In this document: positions 3,383-40,076 of the stretch, piece after piece
Layout of the letters: each line of letters opens with the position of its first letter
Numbering within the stretch: position 1 is the stretch's first letter
The notes under the pieces: generated by a model
What the model saw: only the letters and a program-made list of their open reading frames with translations
The model's database searches: none
What the model was told of the DNA's origin: nothing
Made by a program: the position numbers and the translations under genes
Origin: Corallococcus macrosporus
Lineage (GTDB): Bacteria > Myxococcota > Myxococcia > Myxococcales > Myxococcaceae
Direction: 5' to 3'
NCBI RefSeq assembly: GCF_017302985.1
Contig: NZ_JAFIMU010000007.1
Coordinates: 186,001 to 250,000 of the forward strand
DNA length: 64,000 bases

Positions 3383-3414
3383 GAAGCGCGGACATCCCCG
3401 GCGCTCGCGCTTCT

Positions 3415-4212
3415 TCAGCGGGCGCCGGTGACGACGACGGCCTCGGGGGTGCACGCCAGCAGCGCCGCCAGCTCCTGAACGCTCTGCTCGCGGCGCACCC
3501 GCAGGGCGAGCACCTCCAGCTCCAGCGCCTGGTTCGCGCGCAGGAGCGCGAGCACGTCCTCCAGCGGCACCCGGCCCTCCACCAGTCCCCCCCGGGCCCG
3601 GGCGAACGCCTCCGCCTGGACGGGCACGAGCGCCGCCAGCGTGGCGAGCCGCGCCTGGAGCCCCGCGTGCTCACGCACGTATGCGCGCACCAGCTCGCGC
3701 CTGGAGGCGTCGTGAACGCGCGCCAGGAGGGGGGCCGGGTCCAGGGTCACGTCCGCGAGCCACGGCTCGGGCGGGTCCCCCGGAAGCCGCCGGAGCGCGG
3801 GGTCCAGCTCCAGCCCCGCGGCCAGCAGCCACCGGGCACGCTGGTCGGCCCGGGCGGCCACCCGTGCATCGAGCGCCGCCAGCTCCCGCTCCAATCGCCG
3901 CCGGTCGCGCTCGGGCAGCGGCGCGACGTCCCGCTCTGTCTCCGGGCCCGGGTTCCGCGTGCCGCGCGACAGCAGCTCCGCGACGTCATCGCGCGCCGCC
4001 GCCTCGATGCGCGCCGCCTCCTCGTTCTCCCGCAGGCGCAGCCCGGCCTGGGCGGCCTGCCGGGCACGCTCCCCGGACGCCACGCCCATCCGCGCGAGCC
4101 CATCCTGCGCCAGCGCGCCAGGAGGCCCCAGACACAGACACAGGGAGAGCAGCAGCCGGTGCGGGAAGCGCATGAGGGAACCCGACCGCCGGGGCAGGCC
4201 GCGGGCGCTCAC
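3415..4212 (-). CDS. Predicted secreted or periplasmic helical protein
   Basis: Function not recognised. A hydrophobic export signal (RLLLSLCLCLGPPGALAQ) is followed by about 230 mostly helical residues rich in Ala, Arg, Glu and Leu. The segment ARGGLVEGRVPLEDVLALLRANQALELEVLALRVRREQSVQEL resembles the long helices of TolC-like outer-membrane factors, but the protein is about half the usual length, so any TolC relationship is weak inference. Two starts are possible: GTG at 4212, whose GTGA overlaps the stop of the upstream gene (translational coupling), or ATG at 4173 directly before the signal peptide. It is the second gene of a two-gene unit. Confidence 0.75.
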   Translation of the reverse strand: MSARGLPRRSGSLMRFPHRLLLSLCLCLGPPGALAQDGLARMGVASGERARQAAQAGLRLRENEEAARIEAAARDDVAELLSRGTRNPGPETERDVAPLPERDRRRLERELAALDARVAARADQRARWLLAAGLELDPALRRLPGDPPEPWLADVTLDPAPLLARVHDASRRELVRAYVREHAGLQARLATLAALVPVQAEAFARARGGLVEGRVPLEDVLALLRANQALELEVLALRVRREQSVQELAALLACTPEAVVVTGAR

Positions 4213-5543: not shown

Positions 5544-5709
5544 GCGCATGCCCACCTGAAAATCCGGTCCGCCGGGTCATCCGGCAACCCGGGGCCGGGC
5601 TGGTGCGATAATAGGGAAAAGGATTGCACCCGGTGGCGGGGGACGCCGCGGTTCCAGGGCGCCAGCATTTTGGACCCACCGAGGGCAGAGCAGTCTTCGG
5701 AGACAGACG

Positions 5710-8700
5710 ATGGCGATCGACGGACCTCGCAACAACGGCCTCCCGCGCACGCTCCCGCAGCAGCCGCCGGCGCCCAAGCCCGCTCCTCCCCCTCCACCCC
5801 CGCCGCCTCCGGCTCCCAAGCCCGCGCCCCGGGACAGCTCCAGCTTCGAGCCGCGCCCCCAGGCCCGGACCAGCGCGTCGCCGGGCGCGGCCGCCGCTGC
5901 CGCCGCCGCCGCCGCGAAGGCCGCCGCCGCAGCGAAGGCCGCCGCCGCAGCGACGACCGCGAACGCCGTCCCGCAGCGCAACACCGTCATCGGTCCGCCG
6001 GCCCCCGCTCAGCCTCAGGCGCCCGCCACCCCGCCGTACACCCAGGCCCAGGCGGACAAGGACGCCAGCGCCCTGCGTGAGGCCATGGACGGCGGCATGA
6101 CCGGGTGGGGCACCGACGAGGACAAGATCTTCAAGACGCTGGAGGGCAAGACGCCGGATCAAATCGCGATGATCCGCCAGTCCTACCAGGACCACTACGG
6201 CAAGAACCTGGACGCCAAGATCCGCGACGAGCTGGGCGGCTCCGACCTGCAGCGCGCGGAAGGGCTGCTCCAGGGCAACGCGGCGAAGAGCGACGCGGTC
6301 AACCTCCAGTCGGAGATGGACAGCGTCTTCGGCTCCAACGAGGACATGCTCAAGGTGCTGGAGAAGCGCTCCCCCGCGGAGCGCCACGCCATCGCCCAGC
6401 AGTTCGCGGACCTGCACGGCGGCACGCCCGCGGGCCAGAAGCCCGAGGACGTGCTGCTCGCCCGCCTGAGCCGGGAGATGGACGGCGCGCAGCTGGCGCG
6501 CGCCCGGAGCATGCTCGGCGCGGGACAGGCCTCCACGCCCGCGGAGGCGAACGCGCTGGAGACGCAGGCGCTCAAGGCCGGCCTGGAAGAGGACATGGCC
6601 GGCTGGGGCACCGACGAGGGCCGCATCTTCGAGCGCCTGGAGCGGGCCACCCCGGAGCAGCGCGCCGTCCTCGCGCAGGACGCGGGGCTCAAGGCGAAGC
6701 TCAAGGACGAGCTGTCCACCGAGGAGTACGACCGCGCCATCGGCCTGATGCAGGGCAACCCGGCCCAGGCGGACGCGGCCCGGCTGCGCGAGGCCATGAA
6801 CGGCTTCTTCGGCGCCGACGAGAGCGGCGTGCGCGACATCCTCCAGGGCAAGGAGAAGGACGAGCTCGCCGCCATCAAGGCCGAGTACCAGCGCCAGACG
6901 GGCAAGTCGCTGGAGAGCCAGATTCAAGGCTGGGACCGCGGCGACCGCGACGTCACGATGCGCCTGCTCAACCCGCCCGCCGCCAACGACAAGCAGGGCC
7001 AGGCGGAGGCCACCGCCGAGCGGCTGCACCTGGCCATGGACGGCCTGGGCACGGACGAGGACGCCATCCGCTCCGCGCTGGCCGGCAAGTCGAAGACGGA
7101 CCTGGACGCCGTCGCCGCCGCCTACCAGCAGAAGTACGGCAAGGACCTGCGCGCGGAGCTGGACGGCGAGCTGGACGGCCGCGACGAGCTGGAGCTGCTC
7201 AAGCAGGACTACGACCTGGGCGCCATCGACCCCAACGACCCCAACGGCGCGCAGGAGCGCGTGCGGCGGCTGCGCGAGGTCCAGTCCAACGAGTCCGGCT
7301 TCGGCGTGAACCTGCTGGACGGCATCCAGCACCTCACCAAGGGCGAGTCCGACAACGACATCCTCAACCGCAACCTGGCCCGCGCCGACACGGCCATCCA
7401 GGCGGGTGACACCCAGCGCGCGAACACGCTGACGGGCTACGCCACGGACGACCTGACGGCGCTGCAGTCCGCCAAGGACTCGCTGGCGGAGACCACCGCC
7501 ACCGTGGCCGTCGTCGCCGCCACCACCGTGGCCGTCGTCGCGACGGGCGGCGCGGCCACGCCCCTGGCCATCGCCGGGTACGCGACGGTGGGCGCCACCA
7601 CGCGCGCGGCGACGTACGCCGCCATCCAGGGCGACGCGGCCGGGGCGCAGGACCTGAGCCGCCAGGCGCTCATCGGCGCCGTGGAGGGCGGCACGGCCGT
7701 GATTCCCATTGGCAAGGGCGCCAGCGCCGTCACGGGCGGCACGCGCGCCGCGGCCACCACCGCCACGGAGGCCGCGGCCCGCACGGCCGTGCGCGAGACG
7801 ACGGAAGGCACGGTGCGCGCCGCCATCAAGCAGGGCGTGAAGGAGGGCGCCATCGGCGGCGCGGCGGGCGGCGCCACGGACGCGGCCACGCAGAGCGAGA
7901 CGTGGAAGGACGGCGCCCTGACGGGCATGGGCCGCGTGGCCACCCGCGCGGTGACGGACGGCACCGTGGGCGCGGTGACGGGCGGCATCGTCAGCGGCGG
8001 CCTGGCCAAGGGCGGCGAGCTGCTCAAGCCGCGCGAAATCCCCGTGCTGCGCAACCCGGACCTGCCGGGCAACACCACCAAGGTGCGCTACGACAACGGC
8101 CAGGTGCGCATCGAGGCGGGGCCGCTCGCCACGCCCGCGGACATCGCCGCGCACCAGGACACGGCCCGCCTGCTCCAGAAGTACGAGGGGCCCACCGGGC
8201 AGATCCGCCAGCTCAAGGACCGCGTCCAGCAGGCCCTCACCAAGACGCCGGGCTACGGCACGCAGGGCTTCGAGTCCAAGCTGGAGGTGCAGAAGCTCAA
8301 GAACATCCTCGGCGGCCTGGAGGCGGCGCAGCAGCGCATCGACGACAGCATCGCCAGCATGAGCGGCAAGCCCTCCGCGGCCACCGTCGCCGAGCGCGCG
8401 GCGCTCCAGCGCGACATCGCCAACGTGGAGTTCCAGATTGAATTCCACGCGAAGCGGCTGGAGTCGCTGGCGCCGGGCACGGGCTCCGTGGCCATGCACG
8501 GCACGCCCACCGCGACGCCGGACTGGCCGGACGTGGGCAAGACGGTGAACACCGTGGGCCAGGTGCAGCCGCCCCCGACGGCCCCGATGAACGCGGCGGA
8601 GCAGGCCGCCATCAACGACCCGCGCCTGCCGACGGAGACGAAGCCCCAGTTCAAGGCCCGCCAGGCGGACGGGCACCGCGCGTACGCGGAGCGCACCTAC

Positions 8701-9363
8701 GACCCGAAGACGCGCACCCAGGCGGAGCTCAACCGGGACATGGACCCGAGCCCCTTCACCCGGGTGGATCCGACGACCGGGCAGAAGGTGCCCGTGGAGA
8801 CGCAGCAGTACGCCCGGGTCCGCGCGGAGAAGGCCCAGACGGAGATCCTGCGCCGCGGCGTCATCCGCGAGCAGCAGCTGGCGGACGCGTTCCCGAACGG
8901 CCCCACGCTCAACGTCAACGCCAACGACGCGGCCCACGGCGCCGCCCACAACGCGCACACCATCGACCGGCACGGCGCGGCGCTGCCCACGAACGTCGTG
9001 GACGCGCCTCCCGGAGCCCGCACCATCGAGAGCCGCGTCACCACGGGCGACGGCTGGGGGAGCATCGAGAACAACTCGTTCCAGTGGTCCAGCGACGCGA
9101 CCATGGACGCGACCATCAACAAGTACGTCGCCGACAACTGGAGCACCATCAAGGACGAGCTCGCCCTGTACGGCTACAGCGACCGCCTGAACATCCCCGC
9201 GCCCCCTGGCGTGACGGTGGGCAAGGGCTTCACGGCCACGGTGGACACGGCGGGCAACCGGACGGTGTCCGCCGCCACCGCGGGCAGCTACAACATCCGG
9301 CTGCGCCTCATCGACGGCACCCCGCCGCAGGTGATGGTATTGACCGCCTTCCCTGGTCCCTGA
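5710..9363 (+). CDS. Annexin-repeat protein with C-terminal RNase-like (BECR-type) toxin domain
   Basis: A 1217-residue protein with no signal peptide. The order is: Pro-rich and poly-Ala linker (about 10-110); five annexin-like repeats at about 117-187, 193-268, 282-350, 356-420 and 434-498, three with the G-x-GTDE calcium/phospholipid loop (GWGTDED, GWGTDEG, GLGTDED); a hydrophobic Gly/Ala-rich segment at about 590-770; a charged linker; and a C-terminus of about 140 residues. That end has HTIDRHG (H1083, H1088), an NNSFQWSSD segment and a final VLTAFPGP, the pattern of BECR/RNase A-like polymorphic toxin tips. The annexin repeats are strongly supported and the toxin assignment moderately. 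Two unknown genes follow closely, fitting toxin plus immunity order. Confidence 0.88.
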   Translation: MAIDGPRNNGLPRTLPQQPPAPKPAPPPPPPPPPAPKPAPRDSSSFEPRPQARTSASPGAAAAAAAAAAKAAAAAKAAAAATTANAVPQRNTVIGPPAPAQPQAPATPPYTQAQADKDASALREAMDGGMTGWGTDEDKIFKTLEGKTPDQIAMIRQSYQDHYGKNLDAKIRDELGGSDLQRAEGLLQGNAAKSDAVNLQSEMDSVFGSNEDMLKVLEKRSPAERHAIAQQFADLHGGTPAGQKPEDVLLARLSREMDGAQLARARSMLGAGQASTPAEANALETQALKAGLEEDMAGWGTDEGRIFERLERATPEQRAVLAQDAGLKAKLKDELSTEEYDRAIGLMQGNPAQADAARLREAMNGFFGADESGVRDILQGKEKDELAAIKAEYQRQTGKSLESQIQGWDRGDRDVTMRLLNPPAANDKQGQAEATAERLHLAMDGLGTDEDAIRSALAGKSKTDLDAVAAAYQQKYGKDLRAELDGELDGRDELELLKQDYDLGAIDPNDPNGAQERVRRLREVQSNESGFGVNLLDGIQHLTKGESDNDILNRNLARADTAIQAGDTQRANTLTGYATDDLTALQSAKDSLAETTATVAVVAATTVAVVATGGAATPLAIAGYATVGATTRAATYAAIQGDAAGAQDLSRQALIGAVEGGTAVIPIGKGASAVTGGTRAAATTATEAAARTAVRETTEGTVRAAIKQGVKEGAIGGAAGGATDAATQSETWKDGALTGMGRVATRAVTDGTVGAVTGGIVSGGLAKGGELLKPREIPVLRNPDLPGNTTKVRYDNGQVRIEAGPLATPADIAAHQDTARLLQKYEGPTGQIRQLKDRVQQALTKTPGYGTQGFESKLEVQKLKNILGGLEAAQQRIDDSIASMSGKPSAATVAERAALQRDIANVEFQIEFHAKRLESLAPGTGSVAMHGTPTATPDWPDVGKTVNTVGQVQPPPTAPMNAAEQAAINDPRLPTETKPQFKARQADGHRAYAERTYDPKTRTQAELNRDMDPSPFTRVDPTTGQKVPVETQQYARVRAEKAQTEILRRGVIREQQLADAFPNGPTLNVNANDAAHGAAHNAHTIDRHGAALPTNVVDAPPGARTIESRVTTGDGWGSIENNSFQWSSDATMDATINKYVADNWSTIKDELALYGYSDRLNIPAPPGVTVGKGFTATVDTAGNRTVSAATAGSYNIRLRLIDGTPPQVMVLTAFPGP

Positions 9364-10948: not shown

Positions 10949-11821
10949 TCAGCGGCGCGCGTAGGAACCGGTGCGCAGCTCCTCGAGGAGGCTCGGTCCC
11001 TTGGGCGCCCAGCCAAGGAGCTTCTCCGCTTTCTGGGACGTGAACTGCTGATCCAGCGCCAGCGCGTCCGCGAAGGGGCCGAACTGCTTGCGCGCCTCCT
11101 CCAGCGGCCAGGCCTTCGTCTTGCCGGCCACGCCCGCTCCCTCGCTCGCCGCCTGGGCAATGTCCTTCACCTTCACGGGCTTGCCCTGCGTGGCCAGGAG
11201 CACCGTGCCCGAGGGGGCCTTCTCCACGGCGCGCACGTAGAGGTCCGCCAGGTCCTCCACGAACACCACCGGCCAGTGGTTCTCACCCGTGCCCACGTAG
11301 GTGACGGCGCCCGAGTCCTTCACGGACCCGGTGAGCATGGCGGGAATGCCGGTGCCCTGCCCGTAGACGACGCCCGGACGGATGACGATGCCGCGCACGC
11401 CCGGGGTGTTCAGCACGCGCTGCTCCACGCCGGGGCGCCACGCGACGAGCGGCGTGGCGTTCAGCGGCGAGTCCTCGTTGGCGACGCCCTGCGTGTGGCC
11501 GTGCACCCAGACACCGCTCGTGTAGAGGAACGTCTTGTTCGTGCCCTGGAGCGCGCCCAGCACCGCCGCCACGGCCGGCGTGTCCACGTCCTTGTCGTTG
11601 GCCGTCGCCGTCCAGAGGACCGCGTCCACGTCCTTCGCCACGGCCGCCAGCCCCGCCGGGTCCTTCAGGTCGCCCTGCGCCACCTGGACGCCCCTGGCGG
11701 CCAGCTTGCTCCGCGCGTCGTCCGACCGTGCCAGCCCCACCACCTGGTGGCCCGCGCGCTTGAGCGCGTCCACGACCGCCGCACCGATGTACCCCGTCGC
11801 GCCCGTCACAAGGATTCTCAT
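10949..11821 (-). CDS. NAD(P)-dependent SDR/NmrA-like oxidoreductase (copy 1)
   Basis: A 290-residue extended short-chain dehydrogenase. The dinucleotide-binding Rossmann motif is at the very N-terminus (ILVTGATGYIGAAVV, GxxGxxG), followed by the DVDAVLWTATA strand and IVIRPGVVYG, typical of NAD-dependent epimerase/dehydratase proteins. The usual Tyr-x3-Lys is not obvious; TSGVWVHG replaces it, as in atypical NmrA-like members, so a binding or regulatory role is possible. The substrate is unknown. A copy with roughly three-quarters identical residues lies at 17210-18085 in the same orientation. The stop is 9 bp from that of the convergent gene ending at 10939. Confidence 0.9.
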   Translation of the reverse strand: MRILVTGATGYIGAAVVDALKRAGHQVVGLARSDDARSKLAARGVQVAQGDLKDPAGLAAVAKDVDAVLWTATANDKDVDTPAVAAVLGALQGTNKTFLYTSGVWVHGHTQGVANEDSPLNATPLVAWRPGVEQRVLNTPGVRGIVIRPGVVYGQGTGIPAMLTGSVKDSGAVTYVGTGENHWPVVFVEDLADLYVRAVEKAPSGTVLLATQGKPVKVKDIAQAASEGAGVAGKTKAWPLEEARKQFGPFADALALDQQFTSQKAEKLLGWAPKGPSLLEELRTGSYARR

Positions 11822-11935: not shown

Positions 11936-12421
11936 ATGAGCTTCGCCGACAAGCTGCGCGTCTGGATGCCCCTGCACGAGAACGGCGTCAGCCGCGCCGT
12001 GCACTTCGTGGGGGCCTACCTCTTCACCTTCGCCCTGCTGGTGCCCCTGTGCTGGGTGCGCGTGCCCGGCACGCCGCTGACCGCCGCGCACCTGCTGGTG
12101 GCCGCGGTGGCCCTGTACGCCGTGACGCTGGAGTGGACCGCCGGCCTGCTCATGGCCCTGCCGCTCATCCCCACGCTCCTCTCCGCCCAGGCCGTGGCCG
12201 GGCTGCCCACGGGGACGGCCGCGGGTATCGCCCTGGGCGTCATGGTCTTCCGTTTCGCGCTGGTGGTGGGCGCGCACGTCGTCTTCGAGAAGAAGACCCA
12301 CGGCCTGTCCCTGGGCGGCCCGCTGCTCTTCTTCATCGAGCCCGTGTACCTGCTCACCCTGGTGCTCTTCTCCCTGGGCATGAAGCAGGACCTGCGCGCG
12401 CGCGTGGCCGCCAGCGCCTGA
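11936..12421 (+). CDS. Mpo1-like (DUF962) family membrane protein
   Basis: A 161-residue membrane protein with four or five hydrophobic segments. It shows the DUF962/YGL010w pattern: an N-terminal His-rich start (HENGVSRAVHFVGAYLF), a second conserved His before an acidic residue (VVGAHVVFEKKTHGLSLGG) and a terminal FFIEPVYLL helix. The yeast homologue Mpo1 is a metal-dependent dioxygenase in alpha-oxidation of 2-hydroxy fatty acids; transfer of that activity to this protein is inference. The ATG at 11936 precedes the first conserved helix. It is divergent from SDR copy 1 and convergent with the transporter at 12435-13340. Confidence 0.85.
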   Translation: MSFADKLRVWMPLHENGVSRAVHFVGAYLFTFALLVPLCWVRVPGTPLTAAHLLVAAVALYAVTLEWTAGLLMALPLIPTLLSAQAVAGLPTGTAAGIALGVMVFRFALVVGAHVVFEKKTHGLSLGGPLLFFIEPVYLLTLVLFSLGMKQDLRARVAASA

Positions 12422-28105: not shown

Positions 28106-29449
28106 CTACAGGCCCGTCGGATAGGTCTCCGGCGCTTCGCCGCGCTCCCAGCCGGCGGTGCGCTCCAGCGGTTCGAGCGCACGCGTCTCATCGATGTGCA
28201 ACATCGCGTCGAACTGCTCGGGCAGCCGGGTGTGGAAGTAGTGGCTCATGCGCTCCGATTGGGGCCGGTAGATGACGCCGATGGCCCGCTGCAGGCGCCG
28301 CTCCCGGAGCGCTCCGGCGGCCTCGCCCAGCTCGCGGAGGTCCAGCAGGAAGCCCGGCATCCCGACCTGGTGGAAGAGGGACTCGTAGCTGCCCGGCAGC
28401 CCGTGGCGGACCTTCTTGCGCTCGGCGGATCCGCCCCAGTTGGAGGCCGCGGTGACGGTGCCCCGGTACGTGCTGAAGCCGATGAGCCGCGTCGCGCCCG
28501 GGTGCCGCTGGCGCGTCAGCTGTCCCAGGTTCACCTCGCCCGCGCCCCCCATCTCCGTCGCGCGGGCATCCCCGACATGGGAGTTGTGAGCCCAGACCAC
28601 GACCCGCGCGTCGCCGGAGCGCCGCGACAGGAACGCCCGCAGCGTGTCCAGCGTGTCCGCCATGTGCGTGTCGCGCAGGTTCCAGGACGAGACGCGCCCA
28701 TGGAACATGGACCGGTAGTACTCCTCCGCGTTCTGGACGACGCGCGCGTTCTGCTCCGCCTCGAACTGCGCGTCCTCCGCCGCGTGCCCGTCCCGGTGCA
28801 GCAGGGACTCGCGCTCCCGCTGAAGTTCTCGCAGTTGAGCAATGACCTGCCGCTCGCAGTCCGGTGACAGCCCCAGCGTGGTCGCGTGGCCGTAGTCCTG
28901 CGGATCCTCCCCGAAGTGCTCGAAGCACGCGTAGCGGTGCCGGGCGCGCCTGGCGGCCTCGGGATCCGCCCGGTCCAGGTACGTCAGCACCGCGCCCATG
29001 GAGGCATGGAGGCTGTAGAGGTCCAGCCCGTAGAACCCGACCTTCTCCCGCACCGGGAGCCGGTCGTTGTGCGTCCGCAGCCAGCCCGCGAAGTCCAGCA
29101 CGTCCGCGTTGCGCCACATCCACGAGGGGAAGCGCTGGAAGTCGGCGAGCGACTCCACCGCGTCCACGTCCGTGCCCACCGCGCGCACGTAGCGGTTGAT
29201 GCGGTACGCGTCCGGCCAGTCCGCCTCCACCGCGACGGCGCTGAAGCCCTTCTCCTCGATGAGCCGCCGCGTCAGCAGCGCGCGCAGCCGGTAGAACTCG
29301 TGCGTGCCGTGGGTCGCCTCCCCAATCAGCACGCACCGCGCGTCGCCCACCAGGTCCATCAGCGGATCCAGGTCTTCCCGCGTCCCCTGGAGCGGCCGCA
29401 CGGTCTCCGCGATGGCTCGCACCAGCAGTGCGTCCTCTCGGGTCGCCAT
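28106..29449 (-). CDS. Erythromycin esterase family protein
   Basis: A 447-residue protein with the erythromycin esterase/succinoglycan-biosynthesis signature: VLIGEATHGTHEFYRLRALLTRRLIEEKGFSAVAVEADW (catalytic-site Glu and His) and a later WAHNSHVGDARATEMG. Characterised members (EreA/EreB) open the macrolide lactone ring, but many homologues, including ones in antibiotic-producing bacteria, have unknown substrates. A GGAG ribosome site lies six bases before the ATG at 29449. It is divergent from the repeat-protein/ATP-grasp operon across 168 bp. Confidence 0.9.
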   Translation of the reverse strand: MATREDALLVRAIAETVRPLQGTREDLDPLMDLVGDARCVLIGEATHGTHEFYRLRALLTRRLIEEKGFSAVAVEADWPDAYRINRYVRAVGTDVDAVESLADFQRFPSWMWRNADVLDFAGWLRTHNDRLPVREKVGFYGLDLYSLHASMGAVLTYLDRADPEAARRARHRYACFEHFGEDPQDYGHATTLGLSPDCERQVIAQLRELQRERESLLHRDGHAAEDAQFEAEQNARVVQNAEEYYRSMFHGRVSSWNLRDTHMADTLDTLRAFLSRRSGDARVVVWAHNSHVGDARATEMGGAGEVNLGQLTRQRHPGATRLIGFSTYRGTVTAASNWGGSAERKKVRHGLPGSYESLFHQVGMPGFLLDLRELGEAAGALRERRLQRAIGVIYRPQSERMSHYFHTRLPEQFDAMLHIDETRALEPLERTAGWERGEAPETYPTGL

Positions 29450-29617
29450 GGTGTCTCCTCCCCTTCTCTTCAAGGGTTGGGACGCGTCCGTGCGGATGGG
29501 AGTCAGCAGGCGGCCAGGCGGCGCGCAAGTCCCTGGGACTCCACGGGGACTCTCACCTTCAGAGAATCAAGCAACTCCGGGCCCCGAGGAGGCGATAACC
29601 CCTCACAAAGGACTCCC

Positions 29618-30226
29618 ATGACCCAGATCAAATCCCCCACGGGCTTCGTGTCGTCGCTGAAGACCGCTCTGAAGACGGCCAGCACGGACGGCAAGGCAGT
29701 GGGCGCTCCGGCCCTGAAGAAGGCGCTCCAGGGTGCCGACGCCGGCAAGCTGAGCCCCCAGCAGAAGAACCAGGTGCGTGACGCCTTCGAGCAGGTGAAG
29801 TTGACCCCGAAGGCCCGCGAGATCGCGGACAGCTTCGTGAAGGCCAAGGACGCCAGCATCCTGAACCCGAACGACGACGTCATCGTGAAGATCATCGCGG
29901 ACGACCCGGTCCGTGGCGGCGGCACCACGGAGGGCGGCCCCGGCCTCCAGTTCCCGGACGACGGCGTCATCGTGAAGATCGTCGCGGACGACCCCCTGCG
30001 TGGCGGCAACACGGAAGGCTCCAGCGTCAAGCCGCAGCACGGTGGCGGCATGGTGAAGGTCATGATGGATGACCCCACCCGTGGCTCGAAGCTGCCGGAC
30101 TTCAAGCTGCCGGACGGGGGCCGCGTGAAGATCCGGATGGACGACCCCACCGGCGGGCTGAAGGTGCCGGACTTCAAGCCGCTGGATGGCGGCATCGTGA
30201 AGGTCAAGATGGACAGCCCGGTCTGA
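29618..30226 (+). CDS. Leader-plus-repeat protein, candidate RiPP (graspetide-type) precursor
   Basis: A 202-residue protein. Residues 1-85 are a soluble, leader-like helical segment (SSLKTALKTASTDGKAVGAP). Residues 86-202 hold five imperfect repeats: VKIIADDPVRG (90-100), VKIVADDPLRG (119-129), VKVMMDDPTRG (146-156), VKIRMDDPTGG (170-180) and VKVKMDSPV (194-202). The consensus VK-[IV]-x-[AM]-DDP-x-[RG]-G offers regularly spaced Lys, Asp and Thr side chains for side-chain cross-linking. It lies 28 bp before an ATP-grasp ligase gene. Graspetide precursors often have several tandem core repeats; the precursor role here is inference from repeat pattern and gene order. The large size is unusual for a RiPP precursor. 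Confidence 0.8.
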   Translation: MTQIKSPTGFVSSLKTALKTASTDGKAVGAPALKKALQGADAGKLSPQQKNQVRDAFEQVKLTPKAREIADSFVKAKDASILNPNDDVIVKIIADDPVRGGGTTEGGPGLQFPDDGVIVKIVADDPLRGGNTEGSSVKPQHGGGMVKVMMDDPTRGSKLPDFKLPDGGRVKIRMDDPTGGLKVPDFKPLDGGIVKVKMDSPV

Positions 30227-30254
30227 GCGACCGGCGGACGAAGTCACGGTCCCC

Positions 30255-31193
30255 ATGACGTCCCGCAAGAAGGTCGTGGTCATCGGCTCGCGTTCGGATG
30301 ACGCCACCCGCTTCGTCGCTGAAGCGGTGGAGCGTCGCCGCGCGCGAGCCGTCGTCCTGGAGACGGACCGGGTCCCGGACTCCGCCGCGTTGAGCTGGGA
30401 GGACGGCGACGTGCACTGGGACGGTGAATGTCTCAGCGACCTGCGCTCGTTCTACCTGAAGAACGTGCGGCTCTCGCTCCCGGTCCCCGAGGCCGAGGCC
30501 CTGTCCAGCCGCAACTTCCCGCGCTGGCAGGAGCAGTACCTGGCGGAGCGCGAGCGCCAGTCGTTCCTCCACTCCGTGCTGCGCTCGCTCCACCGGCGCG
30601 GCGGCTCGTTCGTCAACCCGCTGGAGGCGGTGGAGCTGCACTACCTGAAGCTGCAGCAGCTGGCCCTGCTGCGCCGTCACCGCATCCCCGTGCCCAGCAG
30701 CCTGGCCACCGCGTCGCCGGACGCGGTGCGCGAGTTCGTCGCGCGCCACGGCTCCGTCATCTACAAGCCGCTGGGCGGCGGCGCGATGGTGCGCAAGGTG
30801 GAGGAGTCGGACCTCACCGACGAACGGCTCCAACTGCTCGCCAACTGCCCCGTGCTGTTCCAGGAGCAGATCCCCGGCGACGAGTTCCGCGCCTACGTGC
30901 TCGACGGAGAGCCCGTGGCCGCCTTCCACATCCCCACGGACGGCGTGGTGGACGCGCGGCAGAACCTGCACCGGGTGAAGCCCGCCCGTCTGCCGAAGGA
31001 AGCCTGGGCGATGTGCCTCAAGGGAGCCAGGGCGCTGGGCATGGTCTTCACGGCGGTGGACCTGCGGCGCACGCCCGAGGGAGCCTTCGTGGCGCTTGAG
31101 TTCAACCCCACCCCCGCCATTTCCTTTTTCGATGATCCGCGCGACGGCAAAGTCATCACCCGGCTCGCCAGCTACCTCGTCTCCAAGGCCTGA
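30255..31193 (+). CDS. ATP-grasp ligase, graspetide/RimK-like
   Basis: A 312-residue ATP-grasp enzyme. The N-terminal pre-ATP-grasp part has VVVIGSRSDDATRFVAEAVERR; the ATP-binding lysine region is VIYKPLGGGAMVRKV, the phosphate/hinge region is VLFQEQIPGDEFRAYVLDG, and the metal-binding end is FVALEFNPTPAISFFDD. The ending resembles peptide-modifying ligases such as MvdD/MvdC that form omega-ester or omega-amide bonds, more than RimK itself. It would activate Asp side chains by phosphorylation and ligate them to Thr, Ser or Lys. The partner is probably the repeat protein immediately upstream. The oxygenase gene overlaps its 3-prime end. Confidence 0.88.
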   Translation: MTSRKKVVVIGSRSDDATRFVAEAVERRRARAVVLETDRVPDSAALSWEDGDVHWDGECLSDLRSFYLKNVRLSLPVPEAEALSSRNFPRWQEQYLAERERQSFLHSVLRSLHRRGGSFVNPLEAVELHYLKLQQLALLRRHRIPVPSSLATASPDAVREFVARHGSVIYKPLGGGAMVRKVEESDLTDERLQLLANCPVLFQEQIPGDEFRAYVLDGEPVAAFHIPTDGVVDARQNLHRVKPARLPKEAWAMCLKGARALGMVFTAVDLRRTPEGAFVALEFNPTPAISFFDDPRDGKVITRLASYLVSKA

Positions 31194-31896
31194 GCGCCCG
31201 AGCGGGTTCTTCATCGCGGACTTCGCCGACAGCATCTTCGGCCCCGTCCGCCCTCCCAAACCGGAGGTGTTCCCGCCGTCCGCGGCCGCCTGGACGAGGC
31301 TCGCGTCCGCGTCAGAGTCCCTCCACGCCGCCATCCGCCACGAGTTCGCCGCAGGGGGCCGGGTGCTGCACGTCTGCCTCCGAGACGTCCTCTTCCCCGA
31401 GCGCGCCGAGGCAATGCACCAGGCCCTGCGCGACGCGAGCTTCGTGCGCCATCACCACGGCGCCTATGCCCTGCACATCGCGCCGTTGGATCAACAGGCG
31501 CCCTCCGCCCTGACGGACTTCTGCGCGTGGCTCAAGAGCGAGGACGGCGCGGCCTTCCACGCCGCGCTTGTGGGCTGGCCCGAGCCCCTGGAGACCCGCC
31601 AGGTGCAGGTGTCGCGCATGGAGGCAGGCGAGCACTTCCCGGAGCACCGGGACACGGACGAGGAAGGGCTCGCGGTCGTCTACAACTTCACGCGCCCCTG
31701 GGAGGACGGCTTCGGAGGCGTCCTGACCTTCCGGCATCCGGAAGCGGACGCGGACCTGATGCGCGTCCCCCCGCTCTTCAACTCGGTGTTCATCTTCCGA
31801 GCGAGGGGCGCCCCCCATCGGGTCACGGAGTGGACATCCGCGGCCCAGGGACACCAGCGCTACTCGGTCACGGCCTTCATCCTCGCGAAGCGTTGA
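31132..31896 (+). CDS. 2-oxoglutarate/Fe(II)-dependent oxygenase (prolyl-hydroxylase-like)
   Basis: A 254-residue double-stranded beta-helix oxygenase. The iron ligands are H172 and D174 (EHFPEHRDTDEEG) and H229 (GAPHRVTEW), with a later Arg in GHQRYSVT for 2-oxoglutarate. The strand LAVVYNFTRPWEDGFGGVLTF is typical of prolyl 4-hydroxylase-like members. The start is uncertain: the ATG at 31132 overlaps the ATP-grasp gene by 62 bases; a GTG at 31267 is possible but leaves little before the fold. The overlap indicates co-expression with the ligase. It could hydroxylate the repeat protein (for example at Asp or Pro of DDP), which is inference. Confidence 0.85.
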   Translation: MIRATAKSSPGSPATSSPRPERPSGFFIADFADSIFGPVRPPKPEVFPPSAAAWTRLASASESLHAAIRHEFAAGGRVLHVCLRDVLFPERAEAMHQALRDASFVRHHHGAYALHIAPLDQQAPSALTDFCAWLKSEDGAAFHAALVGWPEPLETRQVQVSRMEAGEHFPEHRDTDEEGLAVVYNFTRPWEDGFGGVLTFRHPEADADLMRVPPLFNSVFIFRARGAPHRVTEWTSAAQGHQRYSVTAFILAKR

Positions 31897-31920: not shown

Positions 31921-33135
31921 ATGTCCAACCATGACCTGGCGCTTCGCGGTCTTTCCCAGCCACGGCTCGCGGACCTGACGTCCGCCCTGAGAGGCCACGT
32001 CGAGCGAGGAGACCTGCCGGGCCTCGTCGCGCTGGTGGCGCGAGGGGACACCGTGCACGTGGACGCGCTGGGAACGCAGGGCCTCACCGAGGGTCCCCCC
32101 ATGCGGCGGGACAGCCTCTTCCGCCTCGCGTCCATGGGCAAGCCCATCACGGCGGTGGCCACGCTGCTGCTCGTGGAGGAAGGAAAGCTGTCGCTCGATG
32201 CAGCCGTGGACCCATGGCTGCCGGAGCTGGCGAACCGCCGCGTCCTGCGCAGGCCCGACGGCCCGCTGGACGACACCGTTCCCGCGAAGCGAGCCATCAC
32301 CGTGCGAGACCTGCTCACGCTGCGCTGGGGCCTGGGCGCGGTGATGGCGCCGCCCGGCACGCATCCCATCCAGCGGGCCATGGCCGAGGCCCGGGTGACG
32401 CCCGGCTTCAACGCCATCACGGATCCGCCCGACGAGTACCTGCGCCGGCTGGGCACGCTGCCGCTCCTGCATCAACCCGGAGAGCGGTGGGCCTATCACA
32501 CGGGCTACGAGGTCCTGGGCGTGCTGGTCGCGCGAGCGTCGGGCATGCGCTTCGACGACTTCCTGCGCGAGCGGCTCTTCCTGCCGCTGGGCATGAGCGA
32601 CACGGCGTTCGTCGTGCCCGAGGAGAAGCTCGACCGGCTCACGACGGCCTACGCGCGGGACCCGGCCACGGGCAGGCTGGAGGCCTGGGACACGCCCACG
32701 AACAGCCACTGGTCGCGGCCGCCCGCCTTCCTCTCGGGAGGGGGCCAGGGCGGGCTGGTGTCCACGGCGGATGACCTCCTGGCCTTCTGCCGGATGCTGC
32801 TGGGCGGCGGTCCCCGGGTGCTCTCCCGAGCAAGCCTCCAGCAAATGCTGACGGATCAGATTCCGGAGGCGCAGAAGGCCGCCTCCCCCTTCTACCCCGG
32901 CTTCTGGGATGCATCCGGGTGGGGCTTCGGAGGGTCGGTCACCACGAAGCCGGACGGCGTCTCCCCCACCGCCGGTCGCTACGGCTGGGCCGGCGGTTAC
33001 GGCCCGATGTTCTTCATTGATCCCCAGCAGGGCCTGACAGCCCTTCTCCTGCTCCAGCGGAGGATGCAGGGCCCGGACGACGAGGCCCTGGCCATGGAGT
33101 TCTCCAGGGCAGCGTACCGGACGCTGGAGGACTGA
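31921..33135 (+). CDS. Serine hydrolase, class C beta-lactamase/esterase family
   Basis: A 404-residue penicillin-binding-like hydrolase. The nucleophile motif S-x-x-K is RLASMGKP, the second motif is Y-x-T in RWAYHTGYEVLG, and the C-terminal WGFGGSVTT plus YGWAGGYGPMFFIDP takes the place of the KTG box. There is no signal peptide, so it is likely cytosolic. Such enzymes are esterases, D-aminopeptidases or lactonases. It lies 24 bp after the oxygenase on the same strand and may belong to the same transcript, where it could trim or hydrolyse a product, but this is not required. Confidence 0.9.
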   Translation: MSNHDLALRGLSQPRLADLTSALRGHVERGDLPGLVALVARGDTVHVDALGTQGLTEGPPMRRDSLFRLASMGKPITAVATLLLVEEGKLSLDAAVDPWLPELANRRVLRRPDGPLDDTVPAKRAITVRDLLTLRWGLGAVMAPPGTHPIQRAMAEARVTPGFNAITDPPDEYLRRLGTLPLLHQPGERWAYHTGYEVLGVLVARASGMRFDDFLRERLFLPLGMSDTAFVVPEEKLDRLTTAYARDPATGRLEAWDTPTNSHWSRPPAFLSGGGQGGLVSTADDLLAFCRMLLGGGPRVLSRASLQQMLTDQIPEAQKAASPFYPGFWDASGWGFGGSVTTKPDGVSPTAGRYGWAGGYGPMFFIDPQQGLTALLLLQRRMQGPDDEALAMEFSRAAYRTLED

Positions 33136-36824: not shown

Positions 36825-39800
36825 TTAGCGCAGCCGCTGGCCGAAGGCCTTCAGGCGGTCTCGGGCCTTCAACAGCTTCTCTCGGGGAATGGAGAACACT
36901 GCGCGTACGCGCTCCGGGTCTCCGCACCATGCGCCTCCGTTGAGCACGACGTGGGTGTGCTCGTAGACGACGCGCGGCAGGTTCTCCGGCGTGAGCTTCA
37001 CGCCATCCATTGAGCGTCCCAGCCACGCCGTCATCGGCGGCGCGAGGAAGAGGCCTCCCGCTTCGGTGGCCTCCGCTCGGCCGTCGTCGGGCAGCGCCTC
37101 CGCCAGCAGTGCTCGCTTCTCCGCGAGGTCGCGCCGCATCCGGGCCAGGTAGTTCCTCAGTGCCTTGTGCCTCGCGGCGTAGAGCAGCTGTCCATCCGGT
37201 CCCCGTGCGTGCGCTGCGTACAGGTATGCCGCCGCTCGCGCGGTGGGCGTGTGCAGCACGCCTGGAGCGCTGTCGCGCAGCGCCGCCACCAGCGCCCGGT
37301 CTTTCGTGGCCACCCAGCCCACTCGCAGGCCTCCGGCCGCGAACTCCTTGGACAGTCCTCCCAGGAGCACCGTCCTCGCGCCGATGCCTGGCACCGCGCC
37401 CTCCAACGTCACCGGGCTGTGCACCGTCTCCGCCGTGGGATTGGTGAGGTTCACCAGACCGAAAATTTCATCCGAGATCCAGAGGCAGCGCTGCTCCACC
37501 ACGAACGTCGCCAGCGCCATCAACTCCTCATGCGACAGGTAGTGGCCCGTGGGGTTCGCTGGCTGGGACAGCACCACCGCGTCAGGCGTGCCGCCTCGCG
37601 CCCGGCGGGACAGCAGCGTGCCCAGCGGTCCGGACTCCACCTCGCACCCCGCGGCGAGGAACGTAGGCGCGAGCACTCCGTAGCAGGGCGTCACCAGGAA
37701 CACTCTCGGTCCCCGGCCCAGCCGATGGCGCAGCGCCACTCCCAGGTGGTGCATCAGTGGCCAGACTCCCGGGGCCACGACGACGTCCTCGGGGGCATAA
37801 CGGGCCCCTCGCGTCTCCAGAAGGAAGGCCGCCACGGCCTCCGCCAGCCCCGTCTGCGTTCCGTCCGCTCGCGGCGCGACTCCCGCCGCGATGAGCCCTT
37901 CCACCAGCGGCAGTGGCAGCGGACCCTCGTTCTCGCCGTAGTCCAGGCGCACGAGCTGAGGGTCGTCATCGCGGAAGAACTTCGGCGCGAACGCGGGCAG
38001 CTCCCCCAACTGCTTGATGCGCCTGGAGCGGGGCAGCGGTACTTCCGGCACCCGGTGCGGCGAGGGCGGCTCCGGCTCCGCGAAGGCCATGCGGAAGGCG
38101 AGCAGCTCCGAGAAGGTGCGCTCGTAGAACCACTCCGCCAGGACGCTGATGCGCGAGTACGTCACCTCCGCGGCCACCTCCAGGTCCGCTCGCAGCGGCT
38201 CCGGCACGGGGAGCAGCAGCGTCAGCTCCAGGTCCGGCCATACCGCGTTCTTGATGAGGCCGTACAGGATGACCAGGTTGGGCGCGTGCTGCGTGCGCGC
38301 GAGGAACTCGAAGAGGGTGCGCGGCTCCACCTCGCCGGTGATGTTGAAGAAGGCGCTCTCGTCCAGCACCACCCAGATGCCCCGCCGCGCGGCTTCGGCA
38401 ACGATGTCTCTCAGCACCGCCAGGTTGGTGCGCTCGCCCGGCTCCACCGTCAGGAGCACCGCCTTCACGTCGAAGGCGGTGAGCAGGCGGCGGATCTCCC
38501 CCAGTGTGTTGTGCGTCACGGTGGCGCGCACGCCTGCCTTGTCCAGCGCTCGCGCATAGAGCGGGTGCAGGCTGCGCGACACCAGCACCGTGTCCCCGGG
38601 GTCACACGTGGCGAGCAGCAGCGAATAGACGGCCTGCTCCCGCTCCGGCGCGACGAACAGCGAGTCCTCCGACAACCTCAGGCCGAAGTGCCGGTCCAGG
38701 TAGCGGGCCACCAGCCGCCGGAAGGACGCGTCCCCGGCCTCGTGCGCGTAGGGCAGGAAGGGCGCCTGTGACAGGCGCTCCGCGAGCGCCGTGACGAAGC
38801 CCAGCTGCTCCGCGGACGCCGCCCCCAGGTCCAGCTCCTCCTGGAGCGGCGCGATGCCCAGGGAGCGCAGCGCGGCGCGCAGGGCCAGCGTCTCCCGGGG
38901 CAGCGACAGGTGGGCCTCCCACACCGCCACCTCGTGCCAGATGGGATGGCCCGCCTGGAGCCAGCCCAGCGCCGTCGCCGCGCGCAGGGGCTCCGGGCTG
39001 TGGGCCTCCATGAAGAACTCGAACTCCCGCCCGGTGCGCTGCTCCAGCGACACCAGGGGCCGGATGTCCGTGTCCGCCGCCTGCATCACCCGCCGCGCCA
39101 CGCGCACCCGGGTGGTGAAGCCGCGCCGGGTGAACATGCGCGCGATGATGGCCCGCCCCGGACGGCCCGCCAGGTTCAGGAGCAGCCGGCCTCCGGCCAG
39201 GAGCCGCTCGGGGGCCTCGTCCAGCAGCCTCGCGATGAGCCCCAGGCCGAAGTGGTCCTCGTAGACGTTCTGCAGCGAGGTGTAGTTGGACAGGTCCAGC
39301 AACGCCTGCTCATCCGCCTGCGCCAGCTCCGCGGGCAGCTCGTCACCGCGCAGCACCTGGGGGATGCACCCCACGATGAAGTCCCACGCGGGCGCCTGCG
39401 GCAGGCCTCGCAGCAGGTCGCTCTCCCCGAAGGACAGCCGCGACACCAGCTGTTCATCTCCGTTGAGCCACGCGTTGCACAGCCCCACCGCCGGAGCCTG
39501 TGGGTTCAGGTCCAGCCCCTGGATGCGCTTGAGCCCCGTGAACTTCGCCAGCGCGATGCAGATCCACCCGGAGCCGGAGCCCACCTCCACCAGCTGCTTG
39601 CCGGCGTACTCGTCCAGCGGAACCTTCAGCAGGCCCTCCAGGAACGTGAACGCCCACGCCTCCGGCGCGAAGATGGATGGCGGAATCAGCAGCTCCAGCC
39701 GCTCCTGGGACGCGCCCACCGCCACCACCACCGACGCCAGCCTCAGCGGCGCGCCCTCCGGCTTGTCCCTCGCCAGCTCCGCCAGCTCGCGCAGCTCCGC

Positions 39801-39896
39801 CAGCGCCCGAGGACGCTCGTCCGGCCGGGCCAGCGCCTCGGAAAGCGTACGCAACTGGACAAAGGCTTCACGGGGAGACGCGGGGTAGGTGGCCAT
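36825..39896 (-). CDS. Methyltransferase-aminotransferase fusion, methionine S-methyltransferase-like
   Basis: A 1023-residue two-domain protein. Residues about 1-310 form an SAM-dependent methyltransferase with IPPSIFAPEAWAFTFLEGLL followed by LVEVGSGSGWICIALAKF and IQGLDLNP, and a substrate-site DFIVGCIPQVL in place of NPPY. Residues about 330-1020 are a PLP aminotransferase-like part with VVLDESAFFNITGE, SDEIFGLVN and GGLSKEFAAGGLRVGW, where the Lys of SKEF is the PLP candidate. This order and length match plant methionine S-methyltransferase, which makes S-methylmethionine; bacterial homologues are rare and their function less known. The ATG at 39896 is preferred. It stands alone. Confidence 0.87.
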   Translation of the reverse strand: MATYPASPREAFVQLRTLSEALARPDERPRALAELRELAELARDKPEGAPLRLASVVVAVGASQERLELLIPPSIFAPEAWAFTFLEGLLKVPLDEYAGKQLVEVGSGSGWICIALAKFTGLKRIQGLDLNPQAPAVGLCNAWLNGDEQLVSRLSFGESDLLRGLPQAPAWDFIVGCIPQVLRGDELPAELAQADEQALLDLSNYTSLQNVYEDHFGLGLIARLLDEAPERLLAGGRLLLNLAGRPGRAIIARMFTRRGFTTRVRVARRVMQAADTDIRPLVSLEQRTGREFEFFMEAHSPEPLRAATALGWLQAGHPIWHEVAVWEAHLSLPRETLALRAALRSLGIAPLQEELDLGAASAEQLGFVTALAERLSQAPFLPYAHEAGDASFRRLVARYLDRHFGLRLSEDSLFVAPEREQAVYSLLLATCDPGDTVLVSRSLHPLYARALDKAGVRATVTHNTLGEIRRLLTAFDVKAVLLTVEPGERTNLAVLRDIVAEAARRGIWVVLDESAFFNITGEVEPRTLFEFLARTQHAPNLVILYGLIKNAVWPDLELTLLLPVPEPLRADLEVAAEVTYSRISVLAEWFYERTFSELLAFRMAFAEPEPPSPHRVPEVPLPRSRRIKQLGELPAFAPKFFRDDDPQLVRLDYGENEGPLPLPLVEGLIAAGVAPRADGTQTGLAEAVAAFLLETRGARYAPEDVVVAPGVWPLMHHLGVALRHRLGRGPRVFLVTPCYGVLAPTFLAAGCEVESGPLGTLLSRRARGGTPDAVVLSQPANPTGHYLSHEELMALATFVVEQRCLWISDEIFGLVNLTNPTAETVHSPVTLEGAVPGIGARTVLLGGLSKEFAAGGLRVGWVATKDRALVAALRDSAPGVLHTPTARAAAYLYAAHARGPDGQLLYAARHKALRNYLARMRRDLAEKRALLAEALPDDGRAEATEAGGLFLAPPMTAWLGRSMDGVKLTPENLPRVVYEHTHVVLNGGAWCGDPERVRAVFSIPREKLLKARDRLKAFGQRLR

Positions 39897-40076
39897 GGCG
39901 CGCCCGACTGTCCGGGCCCGCCCCTCCCCTGTCAACGACAGCCTTTCACCTCAGCCTGACGCATCGCAGTACGGATTTACAGATTGTCATTCCCAGTTTA
40001 CATGGGAAATCTTGAGTCAAACGTCAGTATGCAGCGTGCCCACCGGGCGTCCCCTCTCGTCCGGTGAGGACGCCCC

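What the first reader, a model, noticed from the sequence alone, without database searches (positions are those of the whole stretch)
29618..31896. Candidate graspetide-like RiPP pathway: repeat precursor, ATP-grasp ligase, 2OG oxygenase
Seen: a 202-residue protein with five VK-x-x-x-DDP repeats behind a leader-like region, followed by a peptide-ligase-like ATP-grasp enzyme and an overlapping 2OG-Fe(II) oxygenase. Known: graspetide ligases form side-chain omega-ester or amide links on precursors with tandem cores (for example plesiocin from a myxobacterium). Inference: Asp residues of DDP are linked to Lys or Thr, and the oxygenase adds hydroxylation, perhaps on Asp or Pro. The long precursor and the oxygenase partner are the unusual parts.
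Basis: partly seen in the sequence, partly recalled or inferred. Interest (0 to 1): 0.85.

Follow-up and report, generated by a model that had tools for sequence, protein, structure and literature searches.

The report
Corallotide stapled-peptide gene cluster in Corallococcus
A soil predator bacterium carries the already published corallotide pathway, which staples a lysine to an aspartate in each repeat of a small protein and then hydroxylates it; what is new is that its switch looks the same as the one in front of the bacterium's type III secretion genes, hinting at a role in attacking prey.

Summary
Window 29618-30226 encodes a 202-aa protein with five K-x-x-x-D-[D/S]-P repeats; 30255-31193 a PsnB-like ATP-grasp ligase; an overlapping ORF to 31896 a 2OG-Fe(II) oxygenase. 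The system is published: it is the corallotide (cor) pathway, graspetide group 15, worked out in Corallococcus exercitus (Carter et al. 2026, PMC13097080). There CorB links Lys to the first Asp of each KxxxD and CorC then hydroxylates the Lys delta-carbon.

Beyond that paper I found corABC outside the window's genus, in three more genera of its family; a CorB-CorC fusion and a precursor mixing KxxxD with TT-x4-EE repeats in other families; and corD kept in both genus members that lack corB, so CorD is probably a neighbour, not a pathway part.

The main new lead: corA sits behind a promoter-like element (GCAAC-N16-19-CGATAA) found at 12 sites in this genome. The same element stands before T3SS-cluster genes in three genera and before genes whose products mostly lack signal peptides. 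Corallotide may therefore be a T3SS-co-regulated, perhaps exported, predation product. That last step is inference.

The parts
29571..29598 (+). Promoter-like bipartite element GCAACT-N16-CGATAA, ending 19 nt before the corA ATG
   Evidence: 2 matches of GCAACN{16,19}CGATAA in the window, 0.01 expected from shuffles; 12 in the genome against 2 for the reversed control; present before corA in 18 of 20 loci, absent in L072 and L073
29618..30226 (+). corA: precursor protein, 202 aa, calculated 21.1 kDa
   Evidence: translation, mass, homologues
29618..29875 (+). N-terminal region of CorA (residues 1-86); the paper reports the same region as alpha-helical in C. exercitus CorA
   Evidence: sequence; PMC13097080 section 12
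29888..29908 (+). repeat 1 KIIADDP (residues 91-97)
29975..29995 (+). repeat 2 KIVADDP (residues 120-126); same heptapeptide as in the published NMR fragment
30056..30076 (+). repeat 3 KVMMDDP (residues 147-153)
30128..30148 (+). repeat 4 KIRMDDP (residues 171-177)
30200..30220 (+). repeat 5 KVKMDSP (residues 195-201)
30255..31193 (+). corB: ATP-grasp graspetide synthetase, 312 aa
   Evidence: PF08443 E 1.8e-6, TIGR04187 E 5.3e-27, 7drm E 5.9e-42, 96.5% identical to the C. exercitus AB043A homologue (L057)
31132..31896 (+). corC: 2OG-Fe(II) oxygenase, 254 aa from ATG 31132 (ORF open to TTG 31096; start unsettled)
   Evidence: PF13640; His172, Asp174, His229 and Arg243, read by me as metal and 2OG ligands, invariant in the 12 homologues aligned; model resembles prolyl-hydroxylase folds
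31921..33135 (+). corD: beta-lactamase/esterase-fold protein, 404 aa; part of the published cluster, here judged a syntenic neighbour
   Evidence: PF00144 E 6.9e-68; SxxK and Tyr motifs kept in 14 of 14 aligned, the copies of G008 and G013 not among them; kept in two genomes without corB

Best explanation
This is the corallotide (cor) pathway of a Corallococcus genome. CorB, a PsnB-like ATP-grasp ligase, condenses the Lys side chain with the first Asp side chain of each KxxxD motif (macrolactam, minus 18 Da per repeat). CorC then hydroxylates the Lys delta-carbon (plus 16 Da) and also activates CorB as a partner protein. Five repeats give five 5-hydroxyisopeptide staples. These chemical steps are shown in the published C. 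exercitus system and inferred here by homology. CorD is probably a neighbour rather than a biosynthetic part (inferred from gene loss patterns). The operon is driven by a promoter class that also serves the genome's type III secretion cluster (shown as shared sequence; the regulation itself is inferred).
For: Gene order, families and motif match the paper. Identity to the C. exercitus AB043A homologues: CorB 96.5%, CorC 94.9%, CorD 89.7% (L057). In 20 precursors, counting the window, the 134 K...D.P motifs keep K, D and P by construction; the fair test is the other way: of 140 D-x-P sites 134 have Lys at -4, and the 6 others are D-G-P in spacers. CorC keeps the presumed metal and 2OG ligands in 12 of 12 aligned. 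The CorB-CorC fusion in L108 fits the published CorB-CorC complex. The published NMR peptide shares PDDGVIVKIVADDPLR with the window's second repeat; only its first residue differs, Asn there and Phe here.
Against: The chemistry was not tested for this orthologue. The C. exercitus AB043A precursor that I read has seven motifs while the published CorA has five and about 22 kDa, so the studied strain or allele differs. CorB scores below the TIGR04187 cut-off. The CorC model is of modest confidence (mean pLDDT 61.4).
Confidence: 0.95

Rival explanations
1. CorA is a substrate or partner of the myxobacterial type III secretion system: the stapled, hydroxylated protein is exported or delivered at prey contact, with its N-terminal region acting as secretion signal or chaperone site. 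(This adds to the best explanation; it concerns the role, not the chemistry.)
For: corA has the element GCAAC-N16-19-CGATAA 19 nt before its ATG. The same element precedes needle-like, TPR-chaperone or SctI-like genes of T3SS clusters in G000, G007, G011, G069, G072, G024 and G025. Of the 12 first genes behind the element in G000, corA among them, 11 have no strongly hydrophobic N-terminus (best 12-residue mean at most 1.1 in the first 40 residues). The 20 CorA sequences reach at most 0.82. T3SS* effectors are described as unknown.
Against: Co-regulation is not secretion. One of the 12 genes (L164) encodes a protein with a lipoprotein-like N-terminus (2.16). The two g4 cor loci lack the element at corA although their T3SS clusters have it. 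Other exporters may serve: by eye G017 has an MFS-like gene downstream of corC and G008 an ABC exporter set. The paper saw no activity in a disk assay on soil bacteria.
Confidence: 0.35
2. Corallotide is a structural matrix protein: staples and 5-hydroxylysine-like chemistry make a collagen-like, aggregating material for the cell surface or the swarm, unrelated to secretion of effectors.
For: The paper reports rapid precipitation of the core and a CD minimum near 205 nm as in some collagens. The two g4 precursors have Gly-Lys-Pro spacers between KxxxD motifs. Repeat number varies from 4 to 9, as in structural repeat proteins.
Against: No signal peptide-like stretch. The Gly-Lys-Pro runs are short, and on reading the 20 precursors I saw them in those two alone; they were counted only there.
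Confidence: 0.3
3. A small-molecule or ribosomal-protein-modifying ATP-grasp enzyme beside an unrelated repeat protein.
For: RimK and LysX models also score.
Against: TIGR04187 and MvdC score higher; nearest solved structure is 7drm; the repeat gene is upstream of corB in 19 of 19 loci; published reconstitution of the orthologue.
Confidence: 0.01

Closest known systems
Corallotide (cor cluster, graspetide group 15), Corallococcus exercitus, Carter et al. 2026, PMC13097080
   Same: Gene order A-B-C-D, KxxxD repeats, TIGR04187-type ligase, PF13640 oxygenase, PF00144 neighbour
   Different: Window precursor has other spacers and its own mix of repeats; five motifs here, seven in C. exercitus AB043A as I read it
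Plesiocin (PsnB; 7drm series; names recalled)
   Same: Ligase family; tandem cores behind an N-terminal region
   Different: Plesiocin uses TT-x4-EE ester rings (recalled); here Lys-Asp amides plus an oxygenase. One relative (L110) carries both motif types and two ATP-grasp genes
SmaO and SmaX oxygenases of graspetide group 18 (as described in PMC13097080, section 10)
   Same: Oxygenases beside a graspetide synthetase
   Different: They beta-hydroxylate Asp and convert it to aminomalonic acid on a linear peptide; CorC hydroxylates Lys after cyclisation
Myxococcus xanthus T3SS* (PMC12075869, PMC10433427; passages seen)
   Same: The cluster that shares the element has SctJ, Q, R, S, T, U, V, N and LcrH-like chaperones
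   Different: T3SS* is described as needleless; the Corallococcus cluster has weak needle-like candidates (PF09392 E 0.018 and 0.033), below Pfam's cut-off. Orthology with T3SS* was not tested

Membership tests
Graspetide | ATP-grasp ligase of the RiPP-maturase branch | tested here: met
   best NCBIfam TIGR04187 E 5.3e-27 though under its cut-off; 7drm E 5.9e-42; no tree was built
Graspetide | precursor with recurring acceptor and donor side chains encoded beside the ligase | tested here: met
   19 of 19 corB loci; 134 KxxxDxP motifs in 20 precursors
Graspetide | side-chain lactam or lactone formed by the ligase | not testable with these tools
   published for the C. exercitus orthologue; not done for this sequence
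Corallotide group 15 | KxxxD repeats in an unusually large precursor | tested here: met
   five in the window; 4-9 across 20 precursors
Corallotide group 15 | divergent 2OG-Fe(II) oxygenase with intact metal site | tested here: met
   PF13640 E 7.5e-11; H172, D174, H229, R243 invariant in 12
Corallotide group 15 | adjacent beta-lactamase-fold CorD | tested here: met
   31921-33135. As a defining feature of the pathway it fails elsewhere: no corD in the fetched loci of G069, G072, G075, G017, G024, G025
Corallotide group 15 | hydroxyl on the Lys delta-carbon | not testable with these tools
   published NMR of the orthologue
T3SS substrate | shared upstream element with the T3SS cluster | tested here: met
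T3SS substrate | T3SS-dependent export | not testable with these tools
   needs a secretion assay with an sct mutant

The most novel reading that the evidence does not exclude
Corallotide is a product of the myxobacterial type III secretion regulon. CorA, stapled by CorB and hydroxylated by CorC, is exported by or acts with the predation T3SS. The element GCAAC-N16-19-CGATAA marks that regulon in the family and lists candidate substrates of a machine whose effectors are described as unknown. This would be the first RiPP delivered by, or co-operating with, a T3SS that I know of (not searched).
Probability: 0.35. Interest if true: 0.85.

Novelty: new member of a known kind. Interest (0 to 1): 0.5.

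Why it matters
The chemistry is already known, so the window's operon by itself adds an orthologue. What would matter is its context. The paper leaves the biological role of corallotide and the function of CorD open. Gene loss patterns suggest CorD is a bystander, and the shared promoter-like element ties corA to type III secretion genes of the kind that relatives use in predation. If right, one motif gives a testable list of T3SS substrates in predatory myxobacteria and a place to look for what corallotide does. The wider family (B-C fusion, KxxxD motifs on proteins of about 470 residues, a precursor mixing two graspetide motif types) offers new enzymes for stapling proteins.

Tried and rejected
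Small-molecule ligase reading: rejected; no tree was built. CorD as a pathway enzyme: weakened, because G013 and G014, the two genus members without corB, keep corD (81 and 85% identical), while six genomes outside the genus have corABC with no corD in the fetched loci of 11.5-13.5 kb. Of those six, G017 has a 53% relative elsewhere, G069 and G072 have 38-39% ones, and G075, G024 and G025 none at E 1e-30. G008 keeps corD about 5 kb away, behind genes that look by eye like an ABC exporter set.

Other graspetide synthetases: a CorB profile matches 74 of 195 genomes at E 1e-25. I fetched 16 of the non-cor places. My scan upstream of the ligase, which printed only ORFs with two or more loose motif hits, showed KIRADDP in G183 alone (L135, the same place as L109); L134 and L138 gave one K...D.P each in long, unrelated-looking ORFs, L139 gave TT-type repeats, and the other 12 printed nothing.

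Structure of the 474-aa relative in L109: poor model (mean pLDDT 50.3), not used further.

Papers: eight searches covered graspetide plus ATP-grasp, corallotide, Corallococcus plus graspetide, and myxobacterial promoters, T3SS, effectors and regulons. 'Corallotide' occurs in one held paper only, PMC13097080. No listed title or abstract opening mentions the promoter-like element, but I saw listings, not the texts, and one search listed 12 of 29; the library lacks most subscription journals and holds no bioRxiv collection. PMC8939145 was seen in outline only.

Gene-start test: 70 fetched loci of the 299 sites counted were entered; three (L174, L175, L185) were dropped because the motif was not found at the expected place in a short locus. 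One search shows L175 to be a T3SS-cluster site and L174 and L185 homologues of the L153 gene.
Full report
Observation. The 202-aa protein (29618-30226) carries KIIADDP, KIVADDP, KVMMDDP, KIRMDDP and KVKMDSP at residues 91, 120, 147, 171 and 195. Shuffling its 117-residue core 100,000 times gave at most four K...D.P motifs, twice; five are observed. The ligase (30255-31193) and the overlapping oxygenase (to 31896) were confirmed by Pfam. Downstream lies a beta-lactamase-fold gene (31921-33135; PF00144 E 6.9e-68); upstream, on the other strand, an erythromycin-esterase-family gene (28106-29473; PF05139 E 1.8e-137).

It is the published corallotide cluster. Carter et al. 2026 (PMC13097080; abstract and sections 7, 10, 11, 12 and 13 read) describe corABCD of Corallococcus exercitus: a large precursor with five KxxxD motifs, a TIGR04187 ligase, a PF13640 oxygenase and a PF00144 protein. 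CorB makes a Lys-Asp isopeptide in each motif; CorC needs the cyclised peptide, 2OG and Fe(II), and hydroxylates the Lys delta-carbon; CorC also activates CorB and co-purifies with it; the role of CorD and the biological role of the product are left open. The paper found group 15 only in Corallococcus. The window proteins are 96.5% (CorB), 94.9% (CorC) and 89.7% (CorD) identical to those of C. exercitus AB043A (L057). In that genome I count seven motifs, so the studied precursor (about 22 kDa, five motifs) must come from another strain or allele; I did not resolve this.

Ligase and oxygenase. CorB's best NCBIfam model is the graspetide maturase TIGR04187 (94.8 bits, under the cut-off of 350), ahead of MvdC, RimK and LysX, and its best solved relative is 7drm (E 5.9e-42), with 5ig9 next at 3.7e-11 (7drm is PsnB of plesiocin by recall). 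CorC keeps His172, Asp174, His229 and Arg243, which I read as the metal and 2OG ligands, in the 12 homologues aligned. A model from ten sequences has mean pLDDT 61.4 and resembles peptide prolyl hydroxylases (Tpa1, OGFOD1, PHD2; Foldseek E 4.5e-10 and weaker), consistent with a protein hydroxylase.

Distribution. In the genus, 15 of 16 genomes match CorA: 14 have corABC, one of them (G011, a MAG by the title of its contig) with a CorB shortened inside; G014 keeps only fused pieces of corA and corC, plus corD; G013 has corD alone. With a CorC profile, 23 of 195 genomes of the phylum match at E 1e-10: 20 corABC loci in the window's family, the G014 remnant, and G182 and G185 from other families. 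Six of the 20 lie outside the genus, in three genera (G069, G072, G075; G017; G024, G025). The last two are titled Archangium sp.; I believe the first three are Myxococcus, from size only. So the cluster is not confined to Corallococcus.

Precursor evolution. Across 20 precursors (window and 19 loci) I count 4-9 motifs, 134 in all (the G075 precursor holds undetermined bases, so its count is a lower bound). Of 140 D-x-P sites, 134 have Lys at -4; the other six are D-G-P in spacers. Asp is coded by GAC 99 and GAT 35 times, which fits selection on the residue; Lys is always AAG, so it gives no such test. The fourth residue of the motif is M, A or S and the sixth is D, E, S, T, V or Q: of the two acidic places only the first Asp is fixed, as the published link requires. 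Only 63-66 residues precede the first motif in G007, G009, G011 and G015, and 11-12 in G024 and G025; the last two have Gly-Lys-Pro runs in their spacers.

Variants outside the family. In L108 (G185) one ORF of 587 aa holds both ligase and oxygenase (RimK E 3.8e-7, 2OG-FeII_Oxy_3 E 2.8e-10), which fits the published CorB-CorC complex. Its upstream protein of about 470 aa has two KIRADDP motifs; in L109 (G183) a homologue, 48% identical, has one, with a ligase and no oxygenase found in the 12-kb region L135. VIFKIRADDP is identical in both. These large proteins were found in 2 of 195 genomes. In L110 (G182), cut by the contig end, the precursor alternates KVRADDP with TT-x4-EE motifs and is followed by two ATP-grasp genes and a CorC.

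CorD. The two genus members without corB keep corD (81 and 85%; in G013 it lies beside the esterase gene, corABC absent), and G008 has it about 5 kb away from corABC. No corD lies in the fetched loci of the six genomes outside the genus; weaker relatives lie elsewhere in G017 (53%), G069 and G072 (38-39%). Its SxxK and Tyr motifs are intact in 14 of 14 aligned. This reads as an old neighbour with its own role. It is an inference from few events.

Shared upstream element. Aligning the DNA before corA shows a conserved block, GCAAC-N16-17-CGATAA, ending 19 nt before the start in the window; the pattern is present in 18 of the 20 corA loci, window included, and absent from G024 and G025. In the window's genome GCAACN{16,19}CGATAA occurs 12 times against 2 for the reversed pattern. 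Summed over the 16 genus genomes it is 170 against 14, and over ten other genomes of the family 129 against 14, no better than control in G024 and G025 (4 against 3, 6 against 4). Of 67 loci tested, 54 have an ATG with a ribosome-binding-like sequence and an ORF of at least 80 codons 10-110 nt downstream, against 36 of 395 shifted positions in the same loci; three loci were dropped. The loci are those that the tools kept, about a quarter of the sites, and many are orthologues, so these are not 67 independent events.

What the element stands before. One site in the genome (G000:C9:16364) lies at the start of a type III secretion cluster: a 187-aa protein with a weak needle match (PF09392 E 0.033), a TPR protein, a weak SctI match, SctJ (PF01514 E 4.5e-22; its NCBIfam score 145.8 is under the cut-off of 161.95), SctN (634.5 bits, cut-off 604.75), then SctQ, R (232.3, 208.6), S, T, U (390.6, 358), V (815.1, 692.25) and LcrH/SycD chaperones (112.2 against 104.8, and a second at 77.2, below it). 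The element also precedes homologues of the needle-like gene in G007, G011, G069, G072, G024 and G025, in all six with the TPR gene following in at least one locus, and of SctI and SctJ in G024; the rest of those clusters was not fetched. The other 11 sites in the window's genome precede corA; a 1217-aa annexin-repeat protein in this same window (5584-5611 and 5710-9363; PF00191 E 1.3e-31 on its first 467 residues); a metallopeptidase-like protein (DUF6782, 26.6 bits against a cut-off of 27); seven proteins without a Pfam match better than E 0.03; and L164, not searched. Eleven of the 12 first genes, corA and the T3SS gene included, lack a strongly hydrophobic N-terminus; L164 has one. Passages of PMC10433427 state that T3SS* effectors are unknown, and of PMC12075869 that the system is needleless.

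Interpretation. Shown here: the locus is an orthologue of the corallotide cluster, the family is wider than stated, and corA shares a rare upstream element with a T3SS cluster. Inferred: that the element is a promoter, that one regulator serves both, and that corallotide is exported by or works with the T3SS. I put the first inference at about 0.85, the second at about 0.7 and the last at 0.35. The main rival for its role is a collagen-like structural material, a likeness that the paper points out.

Noticed in passing
window 5584-5611 and 5710-9363: A second copy of the corA-type upstream element precedes a 1217-aa annexin-repeat protein with a proline-rich N-terminus and no signal peptide-like stretch.
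   Followed up: partly
L199:10675-10899, 11108-11332, 11966-12190 (minus strand; G000 contig C9): Three 74-aa genes in the T3SS cluster, identical in the part printed in full, with a weak match to type III needle proteins (PF09392 E 0.018, one copy searched), although the related M. xanthus T3SS* is called needleless.
   Followed up: partly
L108:5914-7677 (G185): CorB and CorC fused in one ORF of 587 aa, next to a protein of about 470 aa with two KIRADDP motifs.
   Followed up: partly
L109:4352-6627 (G183): A 474-aa protein with a single KIRADDP motif beside a CorB-like ligase, with no CorC found in the 12-kb region.
   Followed up: partly
L110:6045-9146, minus strand (G182, contig end): Truncated precursor mixing KVRADDP with TT-x4-EE motifs, followed by two ATP-grasp genes and a CorC.
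   Followed up: partly
L072:7310-7633 (minus strand) and L073:4823-5326: Precursors without the N-terminal region and with Gly-Lys-Pro runs between KxxxD motifs.
   Followed up: partly
   Followed up: no
L139, about 2974-3564, minus strand (G113): Precursor-like ORF with TTLPAGGAEE-type repeats beside another graspetide synthetase.
   Followed up: no
window 36825-39935, minus strand: 1036-aa ORF that looks by eye like a methyltransferase fused to aminotransferase domains; not searched.
   Followed up: no
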